From Asterochloris sp. CNOR1 (taxonomy: Eukaryota > Chlorophyta > Trebouxiophyceae > Trebouxiales > Trebouxiaceae): a stretch of DNA of 64,000 nt. The notes beneath the pieces are model-generated. The model had not been told where the DNA came from, did not search any database, and saw only the letters and a list, made by a program, of their open reading frames with translations. This document shows positions 7,045 through 64,000 of the stretch, piece by piece; position 1 is the first letter of the stretch, and the number at the start of each line of letters is the position of its first letter. Both the position numbers and the translations under genes were made by a program. The stretch covers positions 1,488,001 to 1,552,000 of the forward strand of contig OZ017762.1 in assembly GCA_963969365.1 (NCBI GenBank). Direction: 5' to 3'.

Positions 7045-10000
7045 ATGGACGACATCAAGCTGTTCTCCAAGAAACGCAAGCGCGATTCCGCAGCAAAGAG
7101 GGATCAAGCAACAGTTCAGCCCGTTGGTGGGGACAAGGTGGCTGAGCAGCCTGCCAAGCTTCAAAGGCTCACAGCAGCATTCCCTGACCGGCGGCCAAGT
7201 GACAGGCCGGACACAGAGGCTTCTGAGCTGTGTAATTTCCGCGATTTGGGTGTCTCAGAATGGCTGGAGCTTGTCTGCAGCTCCCTGGGCATGAAGCAGC
7301 CCACTCAGGTAGGCCTGTGGCTCACAGAACATGCAGTAGACCTCCTGCAGCCTGGCTGAGCTGCTCCTGTGCCACTAGACATGTTGTGTGCCATGCTTGC
7401 AGCAGTGGCTGGCTGTAGGCAAGCAGGCACAGCTGTGGACCCCATGATTTGCACTAGAGCTCCTGGGCAGCTGTCTGCGGCCCTTGTACATCATCCTGTG
7501 ACATCCTGTGGCAGCATGCAAATGCAGCTGTGCAGTGACCAGTCTCTCTTCACATCCCTGCAGGTGCAGCAGGGGTGCATACCGGCCGTCCTGGCAGGCA
7601 GGGACGTCATTGGCACCGCTCACACCGGCAGTGGCAAGACTGCCGCGTTCGCGCTGCCTATCCTGCAGAAGCTGGCCGCAGACCCCTTTGGTGTCTTTGC
7701 ACTGGTACTCACGCCCACCAGGCAAGCTGCAGCTAGCTGCCGATGGGAGAGCAGGTCGGCGTTGCACCTGGGCATCGGACGCCAGTGATACTGCTGGTGC
7801 CAGCACCAGCTGGGCAGCCTGCATAGCTGCTGGCACCAGCAGTATCACTGGCGTCTTCGAGCCGAACTCCACTCCTCAGTTGCTAGACCATCAGCTTTGC
7901 CCTGCAGGGAGCTGGCAATGCAGCTGGCGGACCAGTTCCGTGCCCTGGGCGCAGGCATGTCACTCAAGGTGAGTAGCTTGCTGCAGGTTGCTGTTGAGGG
8001 ACACAAGACAGTTGCGCCGTTCTTGCCAATGTAGCTGGGCACCACCGGTTGGCATGCTTGACAGGCCTGCTTGAGACTGGGCGACCCATCGGATCAAGTG
8101 TCTGCTGATGTGCCGTCTGCAGTATTGCTACTCTGTAGCCCTGCTCAGACTGCAGCACTGCACCACCACATGTTAGGCACGCCAGCCCCTCGCTGACTCT
8201 TTTGCAAATCTGAGCTGCAGCACAGCTAGGGAGAGCTCTGCACAGCTGCAATGCAACAAAGCCAGAACGTTGGCTTCCTTTTCATAAGAACTGCATGCAC
8301 ATTTCGTTTTGCAACGGCGTCCACAACAGGCAGGTCTAGTGACAGGCACCACCAATGATGCAAGCAACATCACGAGCTGATGCTCTTGTCAGCTTAGATC
8401 ATGGATGGCCCCATTGGGCTTCAGCAGCTCCCATTCACCTCAAAGAGGGCGCTGAGACACAACTGTGCATGTGCCAAGGCCCGCACTCGTGCCAGCCACC
8501 CACTGGGTCACATCAGCAAGGATTGCTGCAGCAATCCTGCAATCGACAGCATTGGGTGCCCGGGCTGCAGGAGTGCGTAGTCATTGGAGGGCTGGACATG
8601 CAGCAACAGGCGAGGGCACTGGCACGCCGCCCCCATGTTGTCATCGCAACCCCAGGCAGGCTCAAGGTGAGCTGCACCTCATGTCGGCTGCCCGAGGTCT
8701 GGAGAAGCAATGTGGCGTTCATGTGCTGTCATTGCTGCTGTTGACAAATCAAAGGTAATTTGCAGCACAGCGGTAGTCTTTTGCCTGTGGCGGCTGAGTG
8801 CTGTCCTCACGCAGCTCAGGTATGAATTATTTGCCCACTAAGCATGGCTGCAAGATGCAACATGATTGCAGCAGGCAGCCAATGACAGCAGGCAGCCCTG
8901 GTGGCAGCTTCCAGGGCTGCCAATGTGGCTGTCAGATTGCCCACCAGTGTGGAGTGTGCAACATGTGGTTGTGTTGTTGGCGCGGTCCCTGCCAAATTTA
9001 TGGACCCAGCCGTTTAGAGCATGGTCTCAGCTGACCACCTGCATGCACCAGGGAAGCCTAAGCTGCACAGCTGCCTGCTCAGTAGACATGCGCCCCAAGT
9101 TGACGGAGGCTCTGCCAGCATGCGTGGTTGACCTATCAGGAGTTCAAAACCCACAGTGCTTCCGCAGGACTGGTGAGCGGCCAACTAGAGCAGGCTGTTC
9201 ACGCTGCCAGTCACTGCTGCTGTACAGGGCCCAGAAACAAACTGCCTGTACCACCTGCATGCCAATCTCCATCTCCCCGTAGAAAGCAGTGACCCCGGCC
9301 AGGCAGCCGGCGCTGTTCTGCTGCCAGTTCTTGGTGCTTTTGGACACTCAGAAGATGACCACTTGCACACCCTGCCTGCAGGACCTGGTGGGCAGTCACC
9401 CAGATCTGGCAGCCGGCTTTGCGCGCTGCCAGTTCCTGGTGCTGGATGAGGCTGATAGGCTTCTGGAGTCTTCCTTCGAGGCAGAGCTGCGGATCATCCT
9501 TCAGTTCCTGCCACCTCGCAGGCAGACCCTCCTGTTCAGTGCCACCATGACCAGAAGCCTGGTAGGTCGGTGCTGGCTTTCCTTTCTTTTCTTTTTCTTT
9601 CATTTTCGGCACAGAAACTGCGCAGAACACAGTACCAAGGGCAGGCAGCAGTCTCAGGGCCCAGGTGGGCTCACGCAGCCAATGCTCCCTCACACTGACC
9701 TGTGTTGAGGACCGTGACTACAGCCTGTCAAGCCTGTCAGCCGGTGCTGCTGCTCGAAGAACAGTCTCGTTGGCCATTGCATTGGGAGTCGACGGGCGCG
9801 TCTCGGCAGGGACGTGGCCACTGCTGCCATCCCTAGACGCATGCTGTCCAACAGCAGTGTCCTGCTGTGCCCAGAGCAGATGGCTTCGCAGAAGGCTGCC
9901 CTGCACCAGGCCATCTACATTCCTGCCTGCCATGGCCTGTCATGGCCTGCCATGGCCTGCAGACAGCTCGCTGTGGTGTCTGCTGGCGGGCATGAGTGTT

Positions 10001-12329
10001 CTTGACAAACTGAAGCCGAGCCTGATTTTTGTTTTCGGTTCTGTTTCTGCAGGTGGCACTTCAGCAGGCTGCCCTGCGCGATGCCTTCCACTTCTCTGCT
10101 TACGAGGGACTGCAGACAGCCAAGCGTCTGAAGGAGCAGTACTTGCTTATCCCTGCCAAGACTAAAGAGGTCTATCTGGCCCACCTTCTGAGCCCTGAGC
10201 AGGTCAGCCCTTGTTGGTGCCGGCCAGTGCAGGCTGGGGAGGAGCAAGGGCAGACCTGGCTTGAAGCCCTCTGCACTTGAGGCAGGGGCAAGCACTGCAT
10301 GGGGCCAACACCTGTGGTCGGCTGCCTGTGTCAGCTCTTTTTCACAAACAGCCCCACCAAGAGGTTGACTTGGTAGTACCCTTAGCCCTGAGCAGGTGAG
10401 GCCCCGCGTGCACAGGCATAGGCTGCGAGAGTGAGGTCGCAGAATTTCCTCCAGAAAGGATGCCCCCAGACAGGTTGCCTGCTGCACACCCTCATAGTGG
10501 AGCTTGTCATGGCTCCCATGCTTCTGGGCTGCAGCTGCAAGCGCACAGCATGTGCTTGTGAGCAGTCCTCCTTTGTATGTTTGCCTGCAAGGCTTGCAGC
10601 CAGCCCTCCCTACAGATGCCATGCTGTGCCCTGCAGCTAGAGGCAGGCTGTATACGATTGTGCATGATCTTGTGGGCACCTGCAGGACTGTCCTGCGCCC
10701 TGCACACCAACATACGACCCCTCCCCTGCTCCCTGCAGCTGGAAGCTCACAGAGTTCGCTCGTGCATGATCTTCGTGGGCACGTGCAAGGCCTGCACCCT
10801 CTTGGCAGCGCTGCTGGAGGAGCTGGGGATCTCAGCCACTGCCCTGCACTCCAAGCTGAGCCAGCGGCGACGCTTTGCAGGTGGGGCTTGCTGCTGCCTG
10901 TCTGCATAAATGCAAGGGTATCTGTCAGAGACGGACTCTCAGCCCTGCCGCACAGGTTGTGCTGCAGCTCAAGCCGCCGCACGTTTGAATCAGCTGCCTG
11001 CTCAGCTGGCCTGGCTGTCCATAGTGAGGATCCAGATCTTGTACACATCGCTGCTGTAGCCCTGGTCTGCTTCAAGGTCAGTTGCTGTGCTGCTCTGCTG
11101 GCACCCAATGGGGCCCTTTCTTTGTCCAGCCAGGTGAACCTGCTGCCGCAGCCCTGGACTGATCTGCCAAAGTGAGCGGTGTGTTGCTCTCTTGACCACT
11201 GGCTCAGGCACCCTGTTGGCTGCTGGCTAAGGGCTTTGCTTTCCCTCCGGCTGCAGCCCTGGACCGTTTCAAGTCGGGGGCAGTGCCAATCCTGCTGGCA
11301 ACCGATGTGGCTGCCCGTGGCCTGGACATCCCCACAGTGGACCTGGTGGTCAACTTTGACCTGCCTGTGGCGGCTCGCGACTATGTCCACCGCGTGGGGC
11401 GCACTGCCCGCGCTGGACGCCCAGGGTGGTCCCTCAGCATTGTCTCACAGGTGCAAACCTGTCCTGGGTTCTGCTTGAGGTGACAAGAAGTAGCACAAGA
11501 CTCCGCTCCTGGACCGCATGCAGGTGCAATTTCATACTTGAGACAAGCTCTGCAGTGGAAGTCTTGTCCTGCCCAGAATGTGTGCCTCAAAGAGACCTGC
11601 ACAGACCTCCAGCAAACTGTAGGTCCTGGCAGCCTCGGCAGCATTCAGCTGGCTGTGCTGGGAAGGGGAAGGCGAAGGTGCATCATAGCTGACAGTGGCA
11701 CTTGAGCAATGTGCTGCCAGTGGACAGGGTGCTGCAGCTGCAGTCATTGAATGATGCCGCCCCTGCTGCAGTATGACGTGGAGCTGGTGAAGGGCATTGA
11801 GAAGTTGATTGGGCACCAGGTCGGTTCATTGCTGTGATCCAGCGCCATGCCTGGTCTACCAGAGCTGCCTGCACGTGTGCCTGGCTCAGCCTAGCCCCAT
11901 GTAGGGCTCTGCTACTGCCATACCTAGCACTGCCCTGCCGCCATACCTCGTTTGCCAGAGCCGCCTACAACATGTCAGGCCCAGCATGCAGCTGCCAAGC
12001 CAGATGCTTGCGTGGCACACTCCACCTGCCTGCAATCTTGCAGGGCCCCACAGGGCCTGGCTCTGTGCCCCGCATGTACCTTGCGCTAATACAAAAAAGG
12101 CTTTGTCAGCATGATGACTTGACTCTGTTGATTTGTCAAGTATGATGTCAACTGACAAATTCTGTGCTGTTTGCACCAGATGGAGGCCTTTGACATGGAC
12201 GAACGTGAAGTGCTCAAGGGCATCACAAAGGTGTACTCTGCACGGCGGGCAGCGGCCATGCACGTGGCTGAGGAGGCTGCCCGCAAGGGTGACGACAAGT
12301 CACTGCAGCGGCGTACCATGCCCTTCTAG
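7045..12329 (+). CDS. DDX49: DEAD-box ATP-dependent RNA helicase DDX49/Dbp8
   Basis: Ten exons: 7045-7308, 7564-7721, 7908-7968, 8571-8666, 9382-9561, 10053-10202, 10739-10880, 11257-11450, 11772-11819, 12180-12329 (stop TAG). They encode 480 residues, close to human DDX49. Motifs in order: Q-motif region with [13 protein letters not shown] (about 84-95), Walker A TGSGKT (109-114), PTRELA across an intron, GG at IGGLD, TPGRL, DEAD (215-218), SAT (246-248), ARGLD (370-374) and [10 protein letters not shown] (395-404). The subfamily call rests on [15 protein letters not shown] and VVIATPGRL, which match DDX49/Dbp8 rather than other DEAD proteins. The family acts in the nucleolus in 18S rRNA maturation and uses ATP to remodel pre-rRNA. 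The N-terminus has a nuclear-localisation-like KKRKR at about residues 9-13. The second intron starts with GC (CCAG, then gcaagc at 7722) and rejoins at 7908 to complete an Arg codon. Introns contain decayed copies of exon ends, listed separately. Confidence 0.97.
7778..7855. repeat. Perfect 28-bp inverted repeat (hairpin) inside DDX49 intron 2
   Basis: Left arm 7778-7805 and right arm 7828-7855 are perfect reverse complements over 28 bp, separated by a 22-bp loop. The arm core is CGCCAGTGATACTGCTGGTG. The hairpin sits wholly inside the DDX49 intron with the GC donor (7722-7907) and makes up over 40 percent of it. It could be a tiny foldback transposon remnant or an RNA structure that brings the splice sites together; the sequence cannot decide. 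Confidence 0.95.
9196..9345 (+). repeat. Two decayed copies of the DDX49 exon-5 DEAD segment in the preceding intron
   Basis: The functional exon (from 9382) contains GCTGCCAGTTCCTGGTGCTGG encoding [10 protein letters not shown]. The upstream intron carries related stretches at about 9309-9345 (GCTGCCAGTTCTTGGTGCTT) and more weakly at about 9196-9225. Neither is an open continuation of the gene. They look like fossil duplications of the exon start. Confidence 0.6.
10376..10400 (+). repeat. Copy of DDX49 exon-6 3' end with its own donor, inside the next intron
   Basis: Exon 6 ends with AGCCCTGAGCAG followed by the gtcagc donor at 10203. About 190 bp downstream, near 10395, the same AGCCCTGAGCAG is followed by gtgagg, a better donor. 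Using it would need a new acceptor upstream. It is most simply a duplicate of the exon-intron junction. Confidence 0.6.
10625..10690 (+). repeat. Decayed copy of DDX49 exon-7 5' end in the preceding intron
   Basis: The functional exon starts at 10739 after CCCTGCAG and encodes [19 protein letters not shown]. About 107 bp upstream a second CCCTGCAG is followed by a diverged copy that reads approximately [12 protein letters not shown] before losing frame. The copy includes the acceptor site, so it duplicates an intron-exon junction. Confidence 0.7.
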
Positions 12330-12990: not shown

Positions 12991-15900
12991 CTACCTCTCC
13001 TCAATGGCTGAATCGTCGCTGCGGGGCGTGAGGGCAGCAGCAGGGTCCAGCTCGGCAGAGGCGCTGCTCTGCGGGCAGTGGAGGCCTGGTGATGAGGCGC
13101 TGCTTCTGTGTTACCTCCAACAAGTGTGCACATACTTTGGATTAATGCACTCGCCAAGGCAGTCGGGACTCAGCATCAGGCCCAGGAATGGAGCTGCAAT
13201 TGCTAGAAGCGCAGCAAGCTTGATTTTTGGCAGGGCATGCTGAGCAAGCAGTGAATCCAGGTGATTGTGCGCCTACAAAGGGCCTTGCATGCCCAGCAAA
13301 GCTGGCTTGAGCAGCAGCGCTCATGCAGCAGCTTGTACAGCCAGCTCCTCACAGCAAGTACCTGGTTGAAATAAACGCTGAGCAAGTGCTGAGCCTTCCT
13401 GACATCATGATCGGACTGCCACAACACATCTCATGGTCTCGTAGCATACAAGCACACAGTACACCTTCCTAGCCTGCAGACTTGGCACTGTGGATGCCCT
13501 TGCAAGACAGCATTCCAAGGATGCCCATAAATCCACATCGCTGAGCAGATGCAGGGCCTGCCAGGAAGCACAGTGGGATACCCAAAGTAAATCCAGCGCT
13601 TGTGGCTTGCTTGTGGCTCGCACTGACCCCTGCAGACCTGCCTGGCCAGCTCCCTGCACGACTCTGGCAGTGAATGTTTGCAGACACACACATGTACACA
13701 CATGCACACACGCACAGCACACCTGCAGGGCCTGCCTGGCCAGCACAATTGGCTCCAGGGGCGAGTCTCGCCGCAGGCTCTCAGCTCGCCTGATGCTTTT
13801 ATCAGCGGGCGGCGGCTTGCCAGACAAATCGCTGCTGGGACCCTCGCTGTCAGCCAGGGACTGCATCACTGTCCTGCATCACAGGCGGGCAACCCTTGAA
13901 ATTCCAGCTGCACCACAGTACAGCAGGCTTGGTCCCCCAACTGGTCCCTTGCAAATTGCCTGCACAACAGCGCTGCCAGCAGAGCCCAGCAGACAGGCCT
14001 TCATGGGTTGCAGTCCTGGAGGGTCACCCAGGCAGGCACACCATGCCTGCATCGCAGTCCTGCAGCCCAGGCACAGACACACATGAGGTGGCCAGACGAG
14101 TGCCATGCATGCTGCACAGCCACGGCTGGCCAGGCAGCCTAGCGCTGCCAGCCAGGGACCCGCCCTGCAACACAGCCAGGCACCTCGTGTGACCTCAGCT
14201 GCACCACAGTCCCAGTGGCCTGGCCTGATGCCTGCCCAGTGGTGCTGTCAGCCAGACACATGGGTTCCACAGTCAGGCACTCAGATCTTGTTCAATATGT
14301 ACAGCACGGGCTTGAGTCATCCTCAGTGAACGCGTTTTCACAGCTCGCTGCAGGCTACGGCCTCTAAGACCCAATGTAAAGAGACTGCCATAGCCAGCTA
14401 GAGCGAGTCCTGGCTGGCATTCTGTTGGAAAGGGTGGAGCGCTCGTGCATTTGCCTGGCCCGATCAGCAAGCCTCCAGCAGAGGTTGTGGCGGCCAAGAA
14501 GCGATCCAGTCAGGACAGCGCAGCCGTGTAGAAGCAAGCCCAGAAAGGCATGCACCGTAAAGGGTGCATGGCCCCACCTGCGTGCTTCAAGAAGTGGGTG
14601 CTGCGCAGAGTCGCGCTCCAGGCACCCAGGGTTGCGCCGCGTCGGTTCCGCTACGCCCTCCTCCCCCTGCCACTGCTGTGGCCCCATCACCAGGCGCCGT
14701 GCCTCCTCCAGAGTGCGGGACATGCCACGCACCAGCGTCGGACTGGGAGGCTGCAGCCACCAACGGTGCAAGGGTGGTGATATGTCACCTGCTGGGCCTC
14801 CGCCAGTATGTGGAACATTCCCGCACCAGGCCTGGACCGGGCCTCTGTACAGATGTCCAACCATGTCTCCACTGACGGGCCTGGCAGTGTGGGTGCAGCA
14901 TGGCCGCAGGCAACCAGCTCAGAATCTAGCTGCAGGGCAGTGCTCAGATATACATGACGTCTTGATTATTGTAACACCACCGTTTGTAGCAGCACTTGCA
15001 GGGCTGCAATCAGTTGCAGAGCTGCAGGTTTGAGAGTCTCCATATCATCAGCATGGAGGCCTCTGGCACATCCCTGGCAGGCCTGCAACAAGTTTATTCA
15101 TGCAGAGTCCCAGTGCTCTTAGCGTGCTGGCAGCCTGGCACATGAGCTGTTGGCAGTGCAGCAAGCTCGAAGCCGCTGTCATGTTGCCCGCTGGCGCACC
15201 TGTTGCGGCACTGCAACGCCACTGGTGCCGCTGCTGCTGGGCGCTGCCGCCACCAGACGCCGCGCCTCCTCCAGTGTGCGCGAGGGTAGTGAATGCAGCT
15301 GCAGCCAAAGCAGAGCTTCTGTCAATGTGTGATGGCGACACAGCGACAGAGCAGAGCCCCCTCTTCCACTAGACTGGGAGCTGCCCCCTACAGTGTGTGT
15401 GAGGGTCTTGAGCGCAGCTGCAGCCCAAAACAAAGCTGTTTAGAGTGCTGAGCGAGCTGCAGACAAGCTGAGCTCTGTCGTGCACCAGACTGGCAGCTGC
15501 TACCTTCAACAGTGCAGAGGGCAGTGAGCAAGGCTCCACCACATGCAGCTAGCACAGCTGCTTTCCCACAACTAGTGCAATTGCAGTGAGGGCACCTGCG
15601 GCTATCTCAAGCTGTGCTGCATGTCATGGCCCAAGGTCTTCAGGGTCCATGACAGGCTGTTAGTCTGCAAGATGTGAAATGCAGGCTGCCTCCCAGAGGG
15701 TATGTCCCCTGACTGAGGTCAAACAAGTACTGCCTGCAGACTGCTTCCTGGGGGATGGGTGGCCCAGACAGCAAGGGCTCACCTGAGGAGGTGCCTCAGG
15801 CGACGAGCTTTGAGCCAGAGAGCTGGAGCCTCCTGCCCCGGTCTCTGCCACACCGCCTGCCAGCACTGCTCTTCGTGCCTCAGACAAAGTGTCCAGCGCA

Positions 15901-18900
15901 GAGTCCTGCCCACATTGAGGCAGACTCAGACATACGCGAGGGACAAACGCGCACATGGCGTGCTGCCCCACCATGGCCAGCAACATACATTAGTGTCAAG
16001 GCATGCCATGATGACAGAGAAAGTCATTTGAAGGTGAAAGGAGTGCAGGGTGCCGATGGTCTCAGGCAGAGTCGGGCTGAAGGCCCATGTAAGCGCATGC
16101 AGGCTAGAAAGTGAACTGATCAACCACCTGTCGCGGAGCCATCTGATCTGGGGAGGAAGCAGTGGATATGGTAGACACAGAACCCCTGGCTGGACTGGTG
16201 GAGAGCACAGCCCGTCGTGCTGCAGACAGCGTGTCAAGCGCCGAGTCTGCGGCGCAGACAAGAAGGAAGGCATGCGGCATGGGGCAAGACAAGCTGGGTT
16301 CCCAGTGTCAGGGATGGGCCTGCCATCTGCTCTGATGGTGCTGGGCTGTGCAAGTCTGCAGTCTCAGGCGCTGCATCTTCTGCCTTGAGCCGATACATCT
16401 CTCAAATTGTCATGGCAGAATGCCAAGCAGCCATGGGTGCTGCACTGAGGTGCTGCTGCATCTCTGACAGCTGAAACCACCAGCATGACCAAACAGACCT
16501 CCAATTCCAAAGCCGCAGAGAAAGACTGTCCTGCAATGTTGTGGCTTGCAGGACAACTCTCACCAGCACGGCCAGCCATCTCTGTCGAGGGCTCAGCTCG
16601 CAGCTCATCTCCTGGAGACTCCCTGGTGGCTGCCAGGTCCTGAAGCACCATGCGCCTGCAGCACAGAGTCACCAATTTGATTGCTTGCTGGCTACCAATT
16701 GACACACACTCCAGCCTTGGCTGGCAGCCACATCTTGCAGCATCAGCACAGGACAGGATTGTGGTATGTGTGGCTACCAGGTGACTTAGTTGCCCTTCAT
16801 GTGCCGACTGCAGCTTTGGCAGCCTGCCAGCACTGCTGCCGGGATTCACGTGTTGCTCAAATGGCTCCCCTGCCCCAGCGACTATGTCCACTGCCATCTG
16901 CAATGCAAAGCTGGCGGCCATCATTGACTTCAGGGCAATGTCATGTCACGCCTGGGTTTCTACAGCTGAAGACAAACTCCACTTCTCAAGGCAGAGCAAT
17001 GCCCTGCTGACACTGAGCCTCAGTTCCTTAGCCTCCTCCCCCTCAAGGAACCCAATGGCCACACTCAGCAAGGTGACCAGCAGGCACTCCTTCCGTGAGG
17101 CCCTCAACGACCCCAATAGCCCTACTCAACAGGGTGCTCACCTGGCAATACCTCAATGGAGAATTGCGCAACAAGATGCCCACCTGGCCCCTGTCAGCGA
17201 GTCCAGGGCACTGTCATGCCGCGGCTGCACCTCCCCAAGCATGTCAGCTGTGACCCCGCTGCTGCTGCTGGCCCCCACATTCAGTGCAGGGGCCCCCAAG
17301 GGGCTGCCCTGCAGGGCACATGTCGTTCATGAAGGTGGCTGCCTGGCCAAGCAGCTCTCACATGATGCCCAAGCAGCTCACTCAGGATGAGCTGGCCAGC
17401 CAAATACCTTGCCAGGCAGTCATCATAACATTTGTCCTACAGGGTGCTGGGCCCAGCAGCGGCGCAGACCTGCTGTGCTGCCAGATGCCCTGCCTAGCAG
17501 CTCAGATGTGCTGGCTGCTTGTGTAAGCTTTCCATGAAGGCGCATGCAGTCAGCTGGTGGGAAAGCATCTGACAGCTGCCTGGGCCAAAACATGAAAAGC
17601 ATTCAGGGGCATGTTTGAGCATGCACTTGTCTACTGGACAGGCTGAGCTTGATCACAGTGACGGTTTGCAGTGACACCCTCGTGGCAGAAGGCACAAAGA
17701 TCATCAGAGATCATGCAGCCACCTGATTGCTTTTTGTGTCCTTCTAAGGGGGGATTTGGTTTTTACTTGAACATTGTGCTTGGGGTGCTCTTGTCTGAAC
17801 ACCCAGCTGACCCAGCAAGTTGTTTGCAGTCAGTGCAAGCTGCAGGCATGCCCTCGTGACTGACCTGCATCGCTGCCTCAGCGCACCGGCCTAACAATAT
17901 GGTTTACCTTGGGGGTGCTCATGCACCCACACAGGCCCACTGTCACCTGCAAGTGCGCCCCTGATCACTGCTGTTTGCCATTGCCGGAGGACTTGGACTG
18001 GAGCACTGTTCACAAACCATGACTTAGCCCTACCCCACCTGCAGGGCACTGCTCCTCTGCCTGCTGCTGTTGGCCATTGCCTGTGCACTGAGACAGAGCT
18101 CAGCCTCACCTGCAGGGCGCTGCCTCTCTGCCCGCTGCTGTTGGCCATCGCCTGGCGAGCCAGGGTGAGGGACTCCACAGCCGAGTCCCGACGCTCCCTC
18201 GTCCTCCGGGGACTCCTGTCCTGCTGCTGCTGGAGGGGCTGCTGGGCAGACAGCCTGCACAGTGGGGCTGCCCTGACTGGTGCATTGCTCAGCTGGAGAC
18301 TGAATGCTCATTCAGCTCTCAGGGGCTCTTTGCTGCTGCTGGGCACAGAACCTGCATAGCGCGGCTGCCTTCCTCAGTCTAAGAACCAAAGACAACTGGA
18401 CAGCAATTGCTCATGAGTAGCATGAGGCCTCTTTTATAGCTGAAGTAGCTACTGTGTGGACGGCCTGCGCAGCAACACTGCCCTGTTCAGTTCACTGACC
18501 AGGGCCAATAGGAGGAAGTGCCCAATAGATAGGTTGGACCTGTTTGCTGCTGCGGGGTCGGCTGCTGGGCAGACAAGCTGAACAGTGAGTGCCACTGCTC
18601 AAGGCAGATTGAATGATTTCGTTGGTGAGCTGGAGGGGCTTCTGTCGTGCTGCTGTTGCTGCTGATGCTGCTGCTGCTGCTGCCGGTGTCTTAGATGGCC
18701 TACGCATTCAGAGTGCACCAAGAGCTCCTGCCAGGGCAGTCGCCAGCTACACAGGGTCCAAAGCGACAACTACCCTGAAAGAAGGCGCATTGCTGGGTGC
18801 TACAGCATGCAACTCCACCGCTCAGCAACCCTCCACAAGGGTTGGAGGGTGCAGCATGCACATCTGATCCAGCGGCATACGTCACTCACGATGCCCTTTC

Positions 18901-21900: not shown

Positions 21901-24900
21901 CACCGCAGGGCCATACATGCCTGGAGTCATCAGCACTGCAGGCACATTGGTCTGCATGCCTTCATGCAGCCCCTGGCTGTGCCAGAGGCCTCTGTGATGG
22001 GGCCACCCCACACTCACCTCCTCGTATCCTGTGGCCTGCTGCGCTGTCCAGGTCTGCAGCGTCTGGTCGCGTTAGCGGCCTGAGATCATCAGCGCTGTCT
22101 AGGAGCCTGCTGCTGGCGCGCCGCTCCAGGCCACCCTCACCGATTGTGTCACCTGCCATGCCGTGCGATGCTGGTATCAAGTCAGCTCGATCAGCTGCCT
22201 CCTGATCTGCACAGGTAGGTCAGCACATCAGCAGGTCTGCTTGGCTGCCTGCTGATTTGCGCAGCGCAGCACCCCCGGGTTTTTGGGTGCAGGGGTATCG
22301 TTCATGAGGCCCCTCACCTGCACAGCCTAGCTATTTCACAGCAGAATTTCTAGTTCATTCAGAGAATGCACACACGTATCAACAGCAAGTGTTATGCAGG
22401 TATGCATTGCCAGCCTGCTCAGGGGCTGAACACAGTTCATGGCGTTGAGCTGCTTTCTGGTCTGCACAGCCCAGCAGCATGTCAGCAGGGCTGCTTCTGT
22501 GCACTCCTGCAACTGGAAATTACCTTCCTCTCTGACTTGGACATGGAAGGTCAGACATCGCGCAGTACAAGCTTACACAATATACAGGGCCACGGGACTG
22601 CTACCTATGCTCTTGCCCTGTTGTCAGCCAGATGTGAGGCTAGGCTTGTGAGGAGCTGAGCACACTTGTTGTCATGCAGTCAGCACGCCACAAGCCAGCG
22701 TTTCAATGGCAATGCCATGCAGAACTGGTGAGTTGGCGCTGCACAAACTTTCTGTGCTCTTTCACACCAAGATTTTCTTGGTGGGACGCACCTTGCTGCT
22801 GCTGCTGCTGCTCCCCAACAGCCATTGCCATTTGCCACAGGCTGCTGTACTGTGGCGTCCCCCAGACCACTGGACTTGCGCCAGTTGCAGCAGGCTGCTG
22901 CTGCTGCCGCTCGGCAGACCCCTGCTGCCGCTCGGCAGACCCCTGCTGCGACTCTGCGCGTGCAGCTGCCCTAGCCAATGCCCGTTGCCGAAGCTCCTGA
23001 ACAGAAGGGAAGACGGCAATTGCTGAGGTGCAACAGCAGCAACAGTGGGGCTCTTGTGCAATGCGAAGTGAGCTGGCACACAGTCTAAGGTCAGCATGTC
23101 TCAGCAAGCCGTGGTACTTACTTGTATGTGGCGCGCACCTCAATTGCAGATCAAATCCACCATCTTCAGACCAGGCCTGCCTGGGTTGGCGACGCTGGCA
23201 ATGCATGTCGGCAGCTAGCAGCAGCCAATCAACATGCTCGTGACAGGGACAGAGGGGTGTGTTTGGCTGAACTTTCATGAACGAACCACTCTGGCAATTT
23301 TCTTCTCAGCCAGAAAGTCTCAGGCTGCCACAGGAACAGTCCCACTCACCTGCTGGAAAGCGCTCTCCCTGGTGGCCGCCTCCTGCTGCCCAGCAGGCCT
23401 CTGCTGGGCCTCCAGGCCGGGCTGAGCAGCTGGGTCCACTCCAGCTGAGGCGATGGCAGCCTGTTGGCACTCTTCTGGTGCGGTGGCAGCAGTAGGCTGC
23501 TGGAGCTCCACTGGTGAGGCCCCGGCAGCCTGCTGAGCACCCACCGGCTGCCGCACCGCAGCTGTGAGCGCAGCACCTCCATTGGCGCCCCTTGACTGCT
23601 CCTGAGCCTCTGCCAGCTGGACATCACCTCCAGGGTGGTCACCGGACCCTGGCTGATGCTGTGCCTGACGCTGGACTGCGGGGTGCAGGGCCTTGCTGCT
23701 GGCAGTGGCTGCCATGTTCACTGCTGCGGTGGCTGTTGCCACCATGCTGGCAGGCGGAGACGGCCTCCCACTTGGCTCTCCCAACTGCTCAATATCAGGT
23801 CCTGCCTGGGGCCCATTACGGACAGCATCTGCCTCCATCCCCGCCTGCCGGGATGGGGCAGATGCTAGCTGGCCTGGTGTCTCCTGATCTGCCCCGGAGG
23901 GCGCTGCAGCCTGGTCAGCAGCTGGCAGAACAGGCGGCAGAGGCGTGGCCTTCCTGCGGGCGGGCGCCTGCTGCCTGAGAGCCGTGATCTCATCATCACT
24001 CTCACTCTCCCCTGCAGACAGCGTGATTCATTGTCTAGAAGGTGCGGCCTGAAGCTGTACTCACTTCTGACAGCCACAGAAAAATGCTGAAGCATGTTAG
24101 ACTGATTGTTGTATGCACACCAAAATGGCCACCGCCCTGAAGCTCACACATTACAGACAAGATAGTAGGTATTCCGCTATACCGCAAAAGTGCAGGTTAC
24201 TTTGCCCAACTTGCCTGGGGGAAGCGCCCTGAAGCGCATGGGGTCAAATGGCGGCGGAGGATTCTCTGCTGCTGCTGCTCGTGCAATTGCAACCATGTCG
24301 TTGAAGGCCTGCCTATGCCTCTCACGCTCAGCTTCTTCCTCGGCAAAGATGGCTACTCGTTCCGCCTGCTCAGCCTGCAGGGCAGGCAGCCAGAGACACT
24401 GCCTCAGTGTGCTTGCTTGCTTGCTCTGCAGCACAGGCAATTGTCACTGGAGGTCTGCCTGCTGGCCCCATGCTTAGCAGCCTCCTGTGCAACGTGCCTG
24501 CTGCGCGTGCTCAGCCTGTCAGATAGATTGCAGTGCAGGCAATCAGTGCAGGCTCAGTCCATGAAGGTCCTGCAGCGCCTTGCTACAGGCAATGACTGCT
24601 TTGAGGGCTCCAGCAATGCAAGACCGACTGCCTGCTGAGCCTGCAGCCAGCAGAAGCAACTCATAGACTTACTGAAGGTCCCAGCAGTGTAAGATGCGTG
24701 AATGCTCTGCTCATTCTTCCCAATAGGCTGCAGGCGGGCATTGGCTGACAGCAGGAGCCCTGCTGCATTGCTGGCCTGCTGCATGCCATAGCAAGCAACT
24801 GGCAACTTGAGTCGTCAACGGTGTTGCTGTGCAGTCACCTGCTGCCCACCCTCCATAAACGCAGGCCAGCAATGCAGCAGGGCACCTTGAGTCGTCAACG

Positions 24901-26842
24901 GTGTTGCTGTGCAGTCACCTGCTGCCCACCCTCCATAAACGCTGCAGCCAGTCTGCGCTCCCGTTGGTCCACTGGCATCTCATCCAGGTGATTCAGAGAG
25001 GGCAGGCGAGTCACCAGGCGCTTACGGTAGGCCCTGCTGGCAATCAGAGCTTGCTTTCTGTCAGTAGACCAATGATGATAGATACAGGCCACCAAAAGTC
25101 AGCATGCCGCATGCATATCTCTGCATGGCAGCAACTGGGGACGAATGGCGCAGATGGCTGTTCAGTCCTTGAGACACGGAATGCAGCGCCACAGCCACAG
25201 AGCAAAGGATCTGACAGAGCAATCATTCACCAGCGGGTTGCCATTCAGCTTCAGCGAAGCATGCTGGCTCAATTGGAGGCACCTCACAGCCATACACATA
25301 CCCACAGCTGGCAGCCGACACCACTGCCACCGCGCATGTTGGCTTCTACCCACAGCATGCTGAAGACTGCTAACACCGGTCAGGGTTGCAAGCTGCAAGA
25401 CATGGCCTTGGCACGCACCTCGGCGAGTCCAGGCAAAAGCTGCTGTGCCGACCAGAAGCAGCCTGTCAGCTGGACCAAAGGAGTCAGAACCCCACCCCGT
25501 CCTGTATCCCCCACTCACCACATGCTTGACCCCAGTGACTTGCTTGTCACCTTCAGGACACTAATTGCAACCTGTCATAGCCCAACAGTAGGCAGACAAT
25601 ACCACTACCACAGCACCTCATTGCCTGAACCTACCGCATGCTGGAGACTACTGGGTTGCCAGTCAGCTTCAGCAGTGCAAGCTGCAAACTGAACAGTGGC
25701 TCCAGCGCCTCTTCCTCTTCCAAGGCATTTGAGCCGAGGTCTAGAGAGATGAGGCTGGGGCAGTGCTGCAGCTCCATCAAGTCGCCTGACGTCCGCAGCT
25801 TGTTGCCTGCAGCCGGCTGCTGGTGCTGATTGTGAAGTTGAATCTGAGCAACAATTGAAAGAATGGGTCAGCCAATGACAGCCCCTATTTGCTTCAGCCC
25901 TGACTGCTGCGGAGCAAATGCAGGCATTGAAACATCCACCAGGCACAGCAGCACCCCACAGCTAATGCAGACAACACTCAGCACTAGATCTGACATGCTG
26001 GGAGGCCACGGCTAGCATCACCCTCATGCAGCCAGTTGCAAGCAGCAGCCCTGTCTCTGCTGGCAAACATGCACTCCTCACCTGCCAGGGTCACAACAGG
26101 TGCCTGAGCTGTGGCAGTATATTCATCATGTTCTGAGACAGCCTGGGCCAGCACCAGCACCTTGACCTGCCATGATGGGAGTCTTTGCTGCAGAGTTCCG
26201 GAATTCTGCTGAGAGCACTCGTCTACCTATTCCTGCCAGGCGCAGTGACTCTCACCTGCCAGGGCAAGAGTTTTCAGTTGCGGCAGGTGACGTAGCCCTG
26301 ACAGCGTCTCTATCCTGTTCTCAGATAGGTCCAGGGTTTCCAGCTGGAGCAGGGACTCCAGCCCTTCAACCTCTGAAATCATATTTTTCCCCAGGTAGAG
26401 GCAGCGCAGATTGATCAGGAGGTTCAGCCCCTCAATCCTGTCCAGTGCATTGCACTCCAGGTACAGCGTCTTGAGGCCGGTGTATGCCTGCAGGAGAGTG
26501 CCCAGCCAGTGATCTGCAGGGTGATCAAAAGGGCATTGGCAGATATGCAGATGACTGGCAATCAAGCATGTGCACCAAGGGCAGCGGCCCAGCATCGGAT
26601 AGCATTGACAGGGTACACAGCCCATATATGGGCACCTACATCCAAATTTTCCAATTTAGTGATGCCCTTGTGCTGAAGGTGGAGCACATCATTCAGTTCT
26701 GGAACGCTGGAGTACCTGCAAAGCAGAGGACTCTGACGATTGGGCACCCACCGATCCCAGTCTCGCGGGCCACATCATAGCATGACACTTACAGGTTCAA
26801 TTCTTTGCATAGCTGTTTCAAGCTGGCGGGTGTGAGCTCCAT
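12991..26842 (-). CDS. DNAAF1: DNAAF1/ODA7-like leucine-rich dynein arm assembly factor with long repetitive tail
   Basis: Core exons, in phase: 26842-26793, 26715-26640, 26487-26256, 25806-25635, 25036-24919, 24374-24215, 24011-23350, 22996-22792, 22152-22018, 21935-21827, then about 21432-21315, 21163-21086 and further small exons to a stop at 12993-12991. The N-terminus reads MELTPASLKQLCKELNL then YSSVPELNDVLHLQHKG, matching DNAAF1 ([23 protein letters not shown]). LRRs follow (YTGLKTLYLECNALDRIEGL and on), with the LRR cap GNPVVSSMRRAYRKRLVTRL and LNHLDEMPV, and a charged helix AEQAERVAIFAEEEAERERH. The known family acts in the cytoplasm to pre-assemble outer dynein arms for motile cilia (Chlamydomonas ODA7). 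The intron after 24215 uses a GC donor (CCAG, gcaagt); the nearby GT choice breaks the acidic exon GESESDDEITALRQQ. The tail is Gln/Ala/Ser-rich. One gene to 12991 is inference from phase; a second gene beginning below about 21 kb remains possible. Confidence 0.88.
13545..13723 (-). repeat. Three-step copy ladder of exon end LARQALQ
   Basis: The exon ending at 13723 finishes CTGGCCAGGCAGGCCCTGCAG before gtgtgc. Related stretches follow downstream on the minus strand near 13645-13620 (GCTGGCCAGGCAGGTCTGCAG) and near 13570-13545 (CTTCCTGGCAGGCCCTGCA). The spacing is roughly 80 bp. Confidence 0.6.
17941..18153 (-). repeat. Three-copy ladder of an exon end plus GT donor
   Basis: On the minus strand the exon end encoding QAMANSSGQRGSALQ (18153-18110, donor gtgagg at 18109) is followed by two further diverged copies of the same 45 or so bases. 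Their junctions are at 18038 (CCCTGCAG, gtgggg) and 17945 (CTTGCAG, gtgaca). The step sizes are 71 and 93 nt. Each copy keeps the coding end and the GT, so alternative donors are possible. Confidence 0.85.
22895..22955 (-). repeat. In-frame 21-bp tandem repeat (QQGSAER)n
   Basis: Inside the exon 22996-22792 a 21-bp unit occurs two and a part times on the minus strand. It encodes QQGSAER-QQGSAER and then QQQQ. It is in frame and lies in a disordered part of the DNAAF1-like tail. Confidence 0.9.
24801..24942 (-). repeat. 62-bp direct repeat (80-bp period) spanning DNAAF1 exon end and donor
   Basis: 24881-24942 and 24801-24862 are identical apart from one base over 62 bp. The first contains the end of exon 25036-24919 (AAFMEGGQQ) and its gtgact donor. 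The second, inside the intron, repeats FMEGGQQ and the same donor. With one mismatch this is the youngest duplication of its kind in the window. Confidence 0.97.
25230..25420 (-). repeat. Decayed copy of DNAAF1 exon-4 end in the following intron
   Basis: The functional exon ends with LLKLTGNPVVSSMR (ends 25635). About 300 bp downstream the intron has a stretch reading SLKLNGNPLVNDCS near 25250, and just before it (25310-25400) a diverged copy of the exon-end and intron-start bases (GCTTGCA... AGCATGC... GTAG). The similarity covers coding and intronic bases. Confidence 0.55.
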
Positions 26843-48234: not shown

Positions 48235-51198
48235 TTAATGCAGCAGCTCGAGCGGGATGTTGGACGTATTGTCAGTGGTGGAGGGGCTCAGGGCTGCCTG
48301 GAGAGGGTTGCAGAAGTAAGGTCTGCCTTGTGGGTGGGGGCAGCCGTCCAAGCCATCTTTGCAGAGTACAGCAGTGCAGGCTGCCTCGCCTGGCCGCGCA
48401 GCAGCTGAAGCTTCCTGGTGGACAAGCCTAGACTGCAGATTACTTTGGCGCTCGTTTGGAGCTGGATGCGCCAATTGGAGCTGGATGCGCCAAGCTGCCT
48501 GACTTCTGCAGCCTTCTCGTCACGGATTGCCGCTCTTTCAGCCAGCGAGTCCCCCGCTAAGCCTCGCGTCACCCTCAGCCTCGCCACCTCCAAGTCCCTG
48601 ACAGCTATCTCTGCATCAAGATCCGTGGTAACCTTCTTCCTTGCATCAACAACCTTCTGGGCTTCCTTCAGTGCCCTACGGGCAATATCCTGCAGGCACA
48701 GAAAGTCAGTATTCACACATGCTCTGGAGGCACCAAGAGCAGCAGTGCAACAGATGCTGAGCAGCAGACACACACCACAGTGCACACTGGCTGCGCAAGT
48801 GCACGACATGCAGCTGGACTTGAGAGGCACAGGAGCAATTGATGTGATTCTGCAGACACAACAACAACAATTTCAATGGTGACGCCCAGGTTGGACCCTT
48901 TACCGTTTCCCCTCTTCAGAGACTCAGGGCTCAACCTGATGTTAGCAGGTAGTAAACACCATCTGCACCCCGAAACAAGGAGAAACATTTGTACAACCGA
49001 GGCCGTACCAGTGAAAACCCAGCACGATTGATCACGTCAAACCCCACAAGGAACTCAGCATGTGGAAGCCAATATGGAACTGATATGCATTCACGGCAAA
49101 GAAGAGCTGAGAGCAATGAATGTCATGACTGACCAGGGCTGATGGCTGCTTCTTGGCTCTCTTCCTGGAAGCACTGCTGCTGCCACCAGCGCTTTTGCCT
49201 GTGCGCTTGACCCCCCTCCCCTTTGCCATCTTGGTTGAGTCAGTGACAGGCACTCCGATGCTCATCAACCCACTTGCCGCTTCCTGCACACAGTCAGGTT
49301 GCAGCATGGGGGAACCCTTCTGCAGCTTGCAGCAGGGCCAGGGTACCTGATGCTTGCTGACACAGCCAAAGAGCTACAGCCGTGTCCTGCAGGCAGCTTC
49401 AAGCAGCCTGGAAAAGCGTCCTCAGCACTTTGCAGCAGGGTACAGGGTCACACATGCATGCCGGCACTGCCAAAGGTGGTGGTAGCATGCAACAGATGTC
49501 AGGCTCATCCATGCCACAGCTCAGCTCAGCAAGAGGCCTGCAGCATGTGGTCCAGTAACAGTTTGCAGACACCCGACGCATCCTACCTGCACGGCTGTGT
49601 TGCTTGCTGTGTCCCCTGACCTCCCTGCAGAAACTGGCTGCTTGCCCCTGGCAACCTGTGCCCTGTGGGCAGCCACAGCAGCAACTCCCGAGCCGGATGG
49701 CCCAGCAGCCACTGCAGGTGTTGGCGGCCCAGCTGCAGCTTGTCCCTCCAACCGCCCTGCAGCAGCATGAGGAGGCATCAGCATGCATGGCACCACATGA
49801 TGATGGCAGTGCAACAGCCAAGCAACTCCAATAGGTGAGGGCAAACATGGAAGCAATGGGGCCGCTGGTCCAGTAAAAGTATGCAACACCCCGACGCAGC
49901 CTACCTGCACGACTGCAACCTCATTGCTTGCTGTGTCCGGGGAACAGGCTGCTTGCCCCTGGCGATCTTGGCCCTGTGGGCAGCCACAGCAGCAGCTCCT
50001 GAGCCAGATGGCCCAGCAGCCACTGCAAGTGTTGGCAGCTCAGCTGCAGCTTGCCCCTCACCACCACCCTGCAGCAGCATGAGGAGGCATCAGCATGCCT
50101 GGCGCCACATAGGCGCAGGAAGTGGAAGAACTGCAACTTGCGGGGGCACATTTGCAAATAACCTGGTTGCCGTGTCAGGGCGGGCCGTGAACAGTCCTCA
50201 ACATAGCAGGTAGGACATGGCCCACTAGTTGTGCAGGCATCAGTCGTGGCTGGCATCACAGAGCAGCAGGCAGTCCTAGAGCTGTATGTTGCCCTGGGTG
50301 CACAATGGACGCATGCTCCCGGGCTCTGCAGATCCCATCCCGTCTGCTCAAGCCTCTCTTTCATGCCTTTAAAAAGTGCCAGCCAGGCACACTCAGGCTT
50401 GTACTAATGTGTCCCCCAAGACAAGCTAGACGTACAGCCCTTGGCGCATGAAACTCCCAAGCTCACGTCTGTGTACAAACCTTGGCACAAATAATCACCA
50501 ATCTCATGCCTCTCCTTTGAGACGTGGGACATTGCCGTACAAGCACATGCAGGCTGGTGCAGGTGCTCCCCACAGACTTGCTGCGCGTACAGCCCCTCTC
50601 ACTTCAACCCAAGATCAATGTTGACCTGCATAGGTCTCCCATCTCCCATGTAGATTTGTCACTCCATACCGCATCTCCCTCTCCTTGATCAGCTCGAGGT
50701 GCTGCATGCAACAAAGAGGCACAACATCAAAACGCAGAATAACATGGCAATGCCCTTGCACAAGTCCTCAGCAGTCTGTCTGGCAGCATGAGGGATACGC
50801 AGGCAGCTGCTGCTATATGTCCTGTGGAAGAAGGTGTGCGAGGCATGCCATGGCTGCATAGATCACAGGCAAGCAGGCAACCATGGTCCAGCTGCAAGCC
50901 ATGCACAGCAGGCAGATCATCTTCAGCAGCACACAACAAGCGCGAGCCTCCACTGCAGCAGTATAGCACTCACAAGGGGGTTTCGCTTCCATATTTTGAG
51001 GTAAGCCTCAAATTCTGGGTAGCTGTCTCTGTTCGGACTGCATGCGACGTAGATGTCGAAGAGACACAGAAGGTAAGCGTTGCCTGCCCCGGCTGCAAGC
51101 CTTATGGGAGACACTTCCGAAAGCCCCTTGCATCTGAACTCCAACTGGCCAACCGCATTGAGGCTGAGAAAAACGGCATCTTCTGAGACATCTAACAT
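48235..51198 (-). CDS. Unrecognised protein with coiled coil and basic linker
   Basis: Phase-clean exons: 51198-50974 (MLDVSEDAVFLSLNAVGQLE... AYLKIWKRNPL), 50701-50663 (HLELIKEREMRYG), 49283-49134 (with GRGVKRTGKSAGGSSSASRK), 48689-48444 (DIARRALKEAQKVVDARKKV and a heptad-rich helix), and terminal 48414-48235 ending IPLELLH, stop TAA. Middle exons lie in the 320-bp tandem repeat (Ala/Pro-rich, VAAGPSGSGVAAVAAHRAQV). The first exon vaguely recalls tRNA-splicing endonuclease subunit N-domains (EDAVFL... LEF), but this is weak and I do not assign it. The basic KR cluster suggests nuclear location. The start lies 27 bp from the left end of repeat copy A. Confidence 0.6.
49551..50140. repeat. Tandem duplication, about 320-bp unit, containing an exon
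   Basis: 49551-49800 and 49871-50120 align throughout. Both start GTCCAGTAA and include GCCCTGTGGGCAGCCACAGC, GATGGCCCAGCAGCCACTGCA and GCATGAGGAGGCATCAGCATG. On the minus strand both copies keep an open frame reading VAAGPSGSG, then AVAAHRA, then ARGKQPV. So this is an exon duplication with both copies potentially used. Divergence is about 10-15 percent by eye. Confidence 0.9.
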
Positions 51199-61425: not shown

Positions 61426-61429
61426 ATAG

Positions 61430-62654: not shown

Positions 62655-64000
62655 GCACTGGCTTGATCGCAGAGGACTTCATTGAGGCACTGTCCCTGGT
62701 GCCTGGGGCCCAGCTGGCAGCGGTTGCAGCAAGAAATCCGGAGCGTGTGTCAGCTGCACAAAAATTTGCAGACATGCACGGTGAGCGACCCTCTCACTGC
62801 TGATCAGGGTGTTCTGTATGCACAAGCACGACCATCAAAAACTTGCAGAACCCATGCTCTGCAGACCTGCCTAATGAGAAGCTATCATGTCACTGTACGG
62901 GCAGGCCGTATACTGGACCAGCCTGCATGAATTCAGCAGTGTTTGCAAAACGGTCGTCAGGCAGCAGGGTCAGGCTCTCGTGGATCTAAGGGTGCTGCCA
63001 GGTTGATCCACATTGCGTTAGGCTTTGAGCTATGCAGGCAGAAGTGCTGACCGTGTTGCTAAGTCCTGCTGTGCCTGGCTCAGGGGCAACAATCATGCTT
63101 CATTGTACTTCACCTCCCCCCCAGCGCTTCAGTGTAGACTCCCCTGTGGGGAGCACATGCAGCCATGATGCTAGCCAGGCGCCTTTCATCTCCTACCCTG
63201 CAGGCACAAGCAAAGCTATGCAGCCATGTGCACTGAAAGTAGGGCTGCTGGTGCTGCTATGGAGAGCATGGCTCTGCCCTTTACTCAACGGTACTCAACC
63301 TGTGTTCTGCAGGCGTGAAGCAAGTTCTGGGCAGCTACGAGGAGCTAGCTCAGAGCCCGGCAGTGGACGTCGTGTACGTCAGCAACATCCACACCCTGCA
63401 CAAGGAGACAGTGCTGCTCATGCTGCGGCACGGCAAGCATGTGCTGTGCGAGAAGCCTCTGGCGGTGCGCTGCTGCAGACAAGTCTGCTGGCGAGGGTGT
63501 CACACTACCACAAGGAATGTGCTGCGTGTTTGAAGCACAGGAAGCATGTGCTGTGCGAGAAAGCTCTGGCTGTGAATTGTGTCAACAGGGCATCTGTGTT
63601 GAACAGAGCAATTACGATGGAATTGGACGGCCAAGATGAGTGCAGCACCCTGTGCAAGGATGCTGTGCTGCTCAGGCTGCAGCAGGGGAAGCAAATGCAC
63701 TGCAGATCAGTCTGCTGGCCCTGGTGTCTGTGCAGCATTACACTGCTTGTGCTGCGGCTGCAAGAAGGCTGTGGCAGTGAGCTTTCATGCAGCAGCGGTG
63801 GAGAGTGGCAGCTGGTCGCACTGCCAGTCCACAGCCGGTGGTCGCCTTGGCTAGAGGTCTGCTGGCTTGGCCTGCACGGTGTGAATGGCATGCTGGGTGA
63901 GGTTGACCTGTGGCCTGAGTCGTAGAGTGGCCTGGGCCATGCAGGTCAACGCTGCAGACACCCAAAGCATGGTGGACGCGGCTGCTCAGAGCGGCCTTTT
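62655..64000 (+). CDS. Gfo/Idh/MocA oxidoreductase (dihydrodiol/xylose dehydrogenase-like), partial
   Basis: Exons: 62655-62780, 63313-63464 and 63945 to the window end. They join in phase to read [96 protein letters not shown]. This is the NAD(P)-binding Rossmann half of the family; EKPLA is its catalytic-lysine motif (Lys of EKP). The subfamily with GSYEEL, VDVVY and HxxH resembles trans-1,2-dihydrobenzene-1,2-diol dehydrogenase and D-xylose dehydrogenase. The first exon with the GxGxxG start is not found and should lie upstream, perhaps beyond repeat copy B. The C-terminal substrate domain is past the window. The second intron holds decayed copies of the EKPLA exon end. Confidence 0.9.
63395..63790 (+). 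repeat. Ladder of decayed exon-end copies ([11 protein letters not shown]) in one intron
   Basis: The functional end (63400-63464) encodes [18 protein letters not shown] before gtgcgc. Downstream in the same intron, 63525-63570 reads [11 protein letters not shown] before gtgaat. About 63658-63705 reads [14 protein letters not shown]. About 63745-63775 is a shorter remnant before gtgagc. The true next exon begins at 63945 (VNAADTQS). All copies share the orientation and the GTG at the junction. Confidence 0.88.

What the first reader, a model, noticed from the sequence alone, without database searches (positions are those of the whole stretch)
9196..63790. Introns across the window contain decayed tandem copies of the adjoining exon end, often with the splice site
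In at least four unrelated genes (DDX49, DNAAF1-like, RAD16-like, Gfo/Idh/MocA) introns carry one to three diverged copies of about 40-90 bp from the flanking exon edge, same strand, including the AG/GT junction. Clear cases: 18153-17941, 24942-24801, 25635 to 25250, 29755-29596, 29040-28610, 31555-31347, 10625-10690, 63400-63790. Copies range from one mismatch in 62 bp to barely recognisable, so the process is continuing. Tandem duplication of an AGGT-bearing segment is a proposed route of intron gain. Here it looks frequent enough to be a main source of intron length, donor choice and perhaps new introns.
Basis: partly seen in the sequence, partly recalled or inferred. Interest (0 to 1): 0.9.

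Follow-up and report, generated by a model that had tools for sequence, protein, structure and literature searches.

The report
Introns grown by copying exon ends
In this alga-like genome, short stretches of DNA are often duplicated side by side, and when a duplication straddles an exon-intron border the spare copy ends up inside the intron and decays, so introns lengthen without changing the protein; the test made here gave no sign that new introns are made this way.

Summary
With a gene finder trained on 244 kb of this genome, 65 of 608 exon edges have a same-strand copy in their own intron (score >=20), against 0 of 608 for the reverse complement and 0.14-0.18% for swapped introns. In 80 kb held out: 9 of 158 edges, 0 of 158 reverse complement, 11 of 7,642 swapped. 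Introns with a copy: 22 of 79 in the window, 45 of 304 outside. 59 of 64 aligned copies span the splice junction.

The intron-gain reading is not supported: the AGGT-duplication signature (similarity at a lag equal to intron length) appears in 0 of 304 introns.

Exon edges need no special mechanism. Local direct duplication, 62 of 117 at 60-150 bp, also occurs inside introns and outside predicted genes. Exon-intron pairs exceed intron-intron pairs about 1.95-fold; one-sided decay predicts 1.8-2.0-fold.

Best reading: genome-wide short tandem duplication; copies that straddle a splice junction are hidden by splicing and decay as non-coding DNA. Introns with copies are longer (median 536 v 313 bp). 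Which donor is used needs RNA.

The parts
9250..9338 (+). copy of the acceptor-side exon edge 9358-9443 (DDX49-like gene), inside intron 8667-9381
   Evidence: score 31, identity 0.69
9876..9972 (+). copy of acceptor-side edge 10049-10147, inside intron 9562-10052
   Evidence: score 31, identity 0.69; D8
10624..10690 (+). copy of acceptor-side edge 10726-10794, inside intron 10203-10738; a further copy near 10529-10560 (lag 204)
   Evidence: score 33, identity 0.75; D16
10381..10405 (+). short copy of the donor-side edge 10188-10208 in the same intron
   Evidence: read directly; not scored on its own and not in the list
11053..11145 (+). copy of acceptor-side edge 11250-11348, inside intron 10881-11256
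   Evidence: score 30, identity 0.68
15366..15455 (-). copy of acceptor-side edge 15250-15338, inside intron 15299-15782
   Evidence: score 36, identity 0.72; D15
17922..18069 (-). copy of donor-side edge 18084-18232, inside intron 17309-18109; best ungapped part 18021-18083 v 18092-18154, 83%
   Evidence: D6
24801..24862 (-). 62-bp copy of 24881-24942 with one mismatch; both carry the same donor CAG|GTGACTGC (at 24918 and 24838)
   Evidence: (D5)
24863..24880 (-). 18-nt filler between the two copies, exact reverse complement of 24760-24777 (templated filler, inferred)
24418..24558 (-). copy of acceptor-side edge 24273-24408 of the same intron
   Evidence: score 34, identity 0.66
25320..25421 (-). 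copy of donor-side edge 25601-25711, inside intron 25034-25634; a further copy at 25229-25268 (lag 418)
28581..28664 (-). copy of donor-side edge 28962-29043, inside intron 28316-28989; a further copy at 28843-28884 (lag 139)
   Evidence: D18, D19
29382..29448 (-). copy of acceptor-side edge 29119-29187, inside intron 29177-29722
   Evidence: score 39, identity 0.80; D10
29596..29682 (-). tandem copies (63-bp unit) of donor-side edge 29683-29745
31340..31381 (-). copy of the edge at 31509-31550 (RAD16-like gene), lag 169
   Evidence: D20; exon frame here ambiguous
32823..32926 (-). copy of acceptor-side edge 32715-32821, inside intron 32782-33297
   Evidence: score 37, identity 0.70
38213..38342 (-). 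copy of acceptor-side edge 37948-38066, inside intron 38046-38691
   Evidence: score 40, identity 0.70
39480..39552 (-). copy of acceptor-side edge 39365-39437, inside intron 39429-39841
   Evidence: score 32, identity 0.73
49988..50108 (-). copy of acceptor-side edge 49677-49796, inside intron 49757-50973, lag about 311
   Evidence: score 96, identity 0.90
63528..63580 (+). copy of the donor-side edge 63421-63473 (Gfo/Idh/MocA gene), lag 107; a further copy at 63643-63699 (lag 254)

Best explanation
The genome undergoes frequent short tandem duplication (unit sizes mostly 60-150 bp) at positions not chosen for splice sites. A duplication inside an exon breaks the gene unless it is in frame. 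One inside an intron or outside genes is neutral. One that straddles an exon-intron border is also nearly neutral, because splicing from the outermost donor to the outermost acceptor removes the extra copy with the intron. Such copies persist, decay as ordinary non-coding DNA and lengthen the intron. They stay recognisable longer than other copies because their exon original is held more constant by selection. Shown here: the copies, their excess, their junction-spanning geometry, their decay without coding constraint, their lags and the absence of an intron-birth signature. Inferred: that repair of DNA breaks makes them, that the longer introns are longer because of them, and that the outermost splice sites are the ones used.
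For: Edge copies 65 of 608 (control 0.14-0.18% of 9,037 swaps per edge type; 0 of 608 reverse complement), repeated in held-out sequence 9 of 158 (11 of 7,642 swaps; 0 of 158). 59 of 64 alignments span the junction. Direct repeats peak at lag 60-150 bp, inverted ones hardly occur; 62 of 117 classified hits have lags of 60-150. Rates per million window pairs: exon-intron 1.25 (45 hits), intron-intron 0.64 (33), outside predicted genes 0.54 (8, five of them one array), exon-exon 0.43 (5); four of the five exon-exon lags divide by 3. Simulated detectability of exon-intron pairs is 1.8-2.0 times that of intron-intron pairs over six unit lengths. Mismatches are spread over codon positions (0.212, 0.197, 0.231), so copies decay as non-coding. 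Copied GT kept 15 of 24 and AG 24 of 35, close to what about 78% identity predicts. Introns with copies are longer, median 536 v 313 bp in 383 (p about 1e-11 in the first 304). 38 of 74 positive edges hold two or more copies (extra copies at score >=18, without a swap control). Some units abut as tandem copies should: L009 118 aligned of lag 119, 68-bp units in L014, 63-bp units at 29.6 kb.
Against: Of 18 less-decayed pairs listed, 4 abut or overlap, 8 leave gaps of 11-67 bp and 6 leave 96-350 bp, so a clean tandem origin is not proven for most. One-sided decay predicts lower identity on the intron side of junction-spanning copies; the identities are equal (about 0.77-0.83 on both sides), although the alignments reach the intron side less often, as local alignment drops dissimilar parts. 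The junction-spanning share is helped by the queries being centred on the edge. The exon-intron to intron-intron ratio has a rough 95% interval of 1.3-3.1 (my arithmetic), and strict geometry would lower the neutral expectation to between 1 and 2, so a modest exon-edge preference is not excluded. Held-out acceptor edges are weak: 2 of 79 at score >=20, and 4 own against 5 reverse complement at >=18. Copies are uneven: 9 of 26 stretches outside the window have none, L019 0 of 24 introns. Counts rise with divergence, so a steady present-day rate is not shown. Exons come from my own gene finder, without RNA.
Confidence: 0.82

Rival explanations
1. Intron gain: tandem duplication of an AGGT-bearing exon segment creates a new intron whose length equals the duplicated unit (Rogers model).
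For: Copies carry the splice site (59 of 64 span the junction); the model is described in PMC4974935 and PMC2891723 (passages read).
Against: Its signature, in-register similarity around both splice sites at a lag equal to intron length, is absent: 0 of 304 introns reach 16 of 24 identities, control 0.25%. Copies lie inside longer introns.
Confidence: 0.05
2. Exon edges are a preferred target, for example because transcription or splicing (R-loops) nicks DNA at splice junctions.
For: Exon-intron pairs are about twice as frequent as intron-intron pairs; the interval reaches about 3.
Against: The 2-fold excess is what one-sided decay predicts (1.8-2.0), and similar repeats occur within introns and outside predicted genes.
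Confidence: 0.14
3. The copies are functional: alternative or decoy splice sites, or mutually exclusive exons kept by selection.
For: 15 of 24 donor copies and 24 of 35 acceptor copies keep the splice dinucleotide; L013 6.2-6.6 kb carries an in-frame exon duplicate.
Against: Retention matches the neutral expectation; mismatches are nearly even over codon positions; use of 33 of 36 copied donors would break the frame or meet a stop.
Confidence: 0.1
4. Dispersed intron-invading elements (introners) or microsatellites.
For: Several introns hold more than one copy.
Against: Four copy pairs searched against the 56.4 Mb genome match only their own place, plus one 27-bp inverted neighbour (that search scores only the best candidates). 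Swapped introns give none at score >=25 in the first set and 1 of 7,642 in the second. 62 of 117 lags are 60-150 bp and only 4 are below 60.
Confidence: 0.02

Closest known systems
[quoted passage not shown] ATP2A1, potato RdRp; PMC4974935)
   Same: Same mutation: local tandem duplication that carries splice sites. The potato paper also reports an 83-bp duplication within an existing intron that left gene structure unchanged (passage read).
   Different: Here the duplication straddles existing splice junctions and enlarges existing introns; no birth signature in 304 introns.
Small tandem duplications from repair of breaks with protruding ends (PMC5730883, PMC8355091; Vaughn and Bennetzen 2014 in rice and Schiml 2016, known only as cited there)
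   Same: Direct, adjacent duplications; one young pair has an 18-nt filler copied in inverted orientation from nearby, similar to the templated inserts described for polymerase theta (passages).
   Different: The repair pathway is not shown here; how these lags compare with published size spectra was not established.
Novel intron positions in Drosophila by sliding or tandem duplication (PMC2891723)
   Same: Exonic duplication with proto-splice sites followed by removal of one copy as intron (passages).
   Different: Those are new intron positions inferred by comparing species; here copies decorate existing introns and no species comparison was possible.
Introner elements (recalled; a paper on ILEs appears in the listing)
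   Same: A recurrent source of intron sequence.
   Different: Introners are families spread across genes; the four copy pairs searched are unique to their locus.

Membership tests
Intron gain by AGGT tandem duplication | Similarity in register around both splice sites at a lag equal to intron length | tested here: not met
   0 of 304 introns at >=16 of 24; control 0.25%
Intron gain by AGGT tandem duplication | Orthologous gene in a relative lacks the intron | not testable with these tools
   No relatives of this genome held; protein search switched off
Short tandem duplication | Direct orientation, short range, far above distant or inverted pairs | tested here: met
   about 4.1-4.2 per million at lag 60-150 v 0.00-0.02 beyond 2 kb; inverted 0.08-0.21
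Short tandem duplication | Copies abut (aligned length close to lag) | tested here: inconclusive
   4 of 18 listed pairs abut or overlap; 8 have gaps of 11-67 bp, 6 of 96-350 bp
Break-repair (end-joining) duplications | Microhomology or templated filler at the breakpoint | tested here: inconclusive
   One clear inverted filler (24863-24880); microhomology at other breakpoints was not scored
Introner elements | Same sequence family in many introns | tested here: not met
   Four pairs match their own place only; swapped-intron controls
Alternative or mutually exclusive exons | Copies under coding constraint | tested here: not met
   Mismatch by codon position 0.212, 0.197, 0.231
Alternative splice sites | Use of copy donors or acceptors in mRNA | not testable with these tools
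   No RNA data held

The most novel reading that the evidence does not exclude
In this lineage, tandem duplication across splice junctions is a leading long-term source of intron DNA: introns are built largely from successive, decayed copies of their own exon ends, with the spliceosome's choice of the outermost sites acting as the valve that turns coding sequence into intron sequence without cost.
Probability: 0.25. Interest if true: 0.75.

Novelty: new variant of a known kind. Interest (0 to 1): 0.5.

Why it matters
It gives a measured route by which introns can get longer: about one intron in seven outside the window keeps a recognisable piece of its own exon border (45 of 304). It separates intron growth from intron birth, which are often argued from the same mutation. 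It also offers natural experiments on splice-site choice: at 24.9 kb two identical donors stand 80 bp apart, and only the first avoids an in-frame stop (read).

Tried and rejected
Considered and rejected: intron birth, introners and dispersed repeats, coding or alternative-exon copies, selection for or against decoy splice sites (retention as neutral), assembly artefact (range of identities and spread over stretches).

The pair 2128-2170 / lag 563 was counted as exon-intron (1 of 45 hits); it is probably the two CXC repeats of a tesmin/TSO1-like protein (Pfam TCR found on one; the two-repeat layout is recalled), with one exon missed by the gene finder. It was left in the count.

A RuBisCO small-subunit gene in three exon-like matches (two over the cut-off) on a 4.5 Mb contig fits a green alga or plant; size and GC made me think of a trebouxiophyte alga, which is a guess. 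I obtained no other eukaryotic genome as a benchmark, so whether this rate is unusual is untested. The rise in copy number with divergence was not corrected for detection bias.

Rows dropped: of 475 predicted introns, 304 were used, requiring flanking exons of at least 40 bp with coding score at least 4, transcripts scoring at least 30, and intron length 60-1500; exons failing this were absorbed, so 241 of the 304 are free of such pieces, and 38 of those 241 hold a copy. The held-out set has 79 introns by the same rule. Of 65 positive edges, 64 gave an alignment. The 6.9% of intron bases may count some bases twice where copies of both edges overlap.

The notebook's words that the gene finder recovers the DDX49 model exactly overstate: it was seeded with those exons and adds short pieces.
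Full report
Setting. The window is C17:1488001-1552000 of a 56.4 Mb assembly in 21 contigs with no relatives held; GC of the window is about 57%. A RuBisCO small-subunit gene in three matches, two over the family cut-off, lies on contig C1, which has 4.5 Mb; I infer a nuclear gene and hence a green alga or plant. Alignment of the joined DDX49 exons to solved DEAD-box helicases runs through most of the predicted junctions (the last exon lies beyond the matched part).

Gene models. I trained a small hidden Markov gene finder, starting from seven hand-read DDX49 exons and iterating on the window plus 18 stretches of 10 kb, 244 kb in all. It predicts 475 introns with a CAG|GTGAG donor and CTGCAG|G acceptor, mean exon 127 bp and mean intron 290 bp. 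It keeps the splice sites of the DDX49 exons it was seeded with (not an independent test) and adds three short pieces (9140-9172, 11060-11076, 11130-11133) that are probably spurious. It makes other spurious tiny exons, so the tests used only 304 introns flanked by exons of at least 40 bp.

The observation. For each intron I aligned the last 60 bp of the upstream exon plus 12 bp of intron, and 12 bp of intron plus the first 60 bp of the downstream exon, to the intron body. At score >=20 the donor edge has a copy in 29 of 304 introns and the acceptor edge in 36 of 304. The reverse complement gives 0 and 0. Other introns of similar length give 0.14% and 0.18% of 9,037 comparisons each. Eight further stretches (80 kb), not used in training, give 7 and 2 of 79, reverse complement 0 and 0, and 11 of 7,642 swapped comparisons; at the looser score of 18 the held-out acceptor edges show no excess over the reverse complement, 4 against 5. 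In all, 67 of 383 introns hold a copy: 22 of 79 in the window and 45 of 304 outside, bootstrap interval 9-21%.

Not exon-specific. A model-free scan of 240 kb shows direct repeats at 60-150 bp lag about two hundred times or more above the level beyond 2 kb, with few inverted ones. Classified by region, rates per million window pairs are exon-intron 1.25, intron-intron 0.64, outside predicted genes 0.54 and exon-exon 0.43 (45, 33, 8 and 5 of 117 hits; the other 26 are 2 intron-outside pairs and boundary, mixed or uncertain windows; exon-outside pairs gave 0). If copies arise evenly, an exon-intron pair should stay visible about twice as long as an intron-intron pair, because only one side decays; the simulation gives 1.8-2.0. 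The observed ratio is about 1.95. No preference for exon edges is needed, though a modest one is not excluded. Four of five exon-exon repeats have lags divisible by three (54, 99, 387, 531, 563), as expected if frame-breaking ones are removed, but five is few.

Geometry and decay. 59 of 64 aligned copies span the junction (24 of 28 donor, 35 of 36 acceptor), and with repeated masking 121 of 137. The queries were centred on the edge, which helps this share. Copies that run on into intron sequence are what duplication of DNA across the border gives, and not what a copy of spliced RNA would give. Some units abut: 68-bp units in L014, 63-bp units at 29.6 kb, 118 of 119 bp in L009; most of the 18 pairs listed do not, with gaps of 11-67 bp in 8 and 96-350 bp in 6. 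The 24.8 kb pair has an 18-nt filler that is the exact reverse complement of 24760-24777, which resembles templated repair. Mismatches between exon and copy are almost even over codon positions (0.212, 0.197, 0.231 of 1,452-1,465 sites each). The copied GT is kept in 15 of 24 and AG in 24 of 35, near the neutral value for about 78% identity. Copies thus decay as non-coding DNA and their splice sites are neither clearly purged nor kept. One result does not fit neatly: identity is no lower on the intron side of the junction than on the exon side (0.777 and 0.831 v 0.768 and 0.794 for donors; 0.775 and 0.788 v 0.779 and 0.786 for acceptors), although the intron original should decay too. Fewer alignments reach the intron side (301 v 457 aligned bases in 19-bp zones for donors, 472 v 661 for acceptors), so local alignment probably trims the decayed parts, but this was not modelled.

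Intron birth. Under the AGGT model the duplicated unit equals the intron, so the sequence around the donor should resemble that around the acceptor in register. Best 24-bp windows at a lag equal to intron length (+-3, splice consensus masked) reach 16 identities in 0 of 304 introns against 0.25% of control pairs. A share above about 1% of recently born introns is unlikely in this sample (rule of three, my arithmetic). A birth too old to recognise, or a new intron that the gene finder reads as exon, would be missed.

Effect on introns. Introns with a copy have median length 536 bp, those without 313 bp. Recognisable copies make up 6.9% of intron bases (10,654 of 154,630; some may be counted twice). 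Of 36 donor copies that keep GT, the use of 33 would shift the frame or meet a stop, and 24 of 36 score lower than the original donor. So the gene models require the outer site to be used; RNA would have to confirm that.

Literature. The library was searched (listings seen). Passages were read in PMC8355091, PMC2891723, PMC4974935, PMC5730883 and PMC3488318. These describe intron gain by tandem duplication and small tandem duplications from break repair. In the listings and passages I saw no report of a genome-wide excess of decayed exon-edge copies in existing introns; most subscription papers are not in the library, and Vaughn and Bennetzen 2014 was not held.

Verdict. The best explanation is growth of existing introns by tandem duplications that straddle splice junctions, as one visible part of a general short-duplication process. 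The intron-gain reading fails its test here. Whether the rate is exceptional among eukaryotes could not be measured.

Noticed in passing
24863-24880: The 18-nt spacer of the youngest window duplication is the exact reverse complement of 24760-24777, a likely templated filler from break repair.
   Followed up: partly
2128-2170 and 2691-2733: Direct repeat at lag 563 is probably the two CXC repeats of a tesmin/TSO1-like protein rather than an intron copy.
   Followed up: partly
about 12991-21100 (- strand): Successive predicted exons of two neighbouring models encode related 'DSA...ARR'-like motifs (read by eye), suggesting that tandem duplication has also multiplied exons here.
   Followed up: no
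L013:6198-6608: An exon with its flanking intron parts is duplicated at lag 387-403; both copies are predicted as exons and the exon lag of 387 is a multiple of three.
   Followed up: partly
31540-31560 (- strand): The RAD16-like reading frame shows an apparent one-base shift just before the donor, so the exon end is ambiguous.
   Followed up: no
47277-47599: Array of about four copies with a 69-bp period, outside predicted genes.
   Followed up: no
53343-59151: Purple acid phosphatase-like gene with many introns; its model shows one in-frame stop, and no edge copy of score >=20 from it is listed.
   Followed up: no
L014:537-663: Tandem 68-bp units carry successive, nearly identical donor sites: a natural test of donor choice.
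   Followed up: partly
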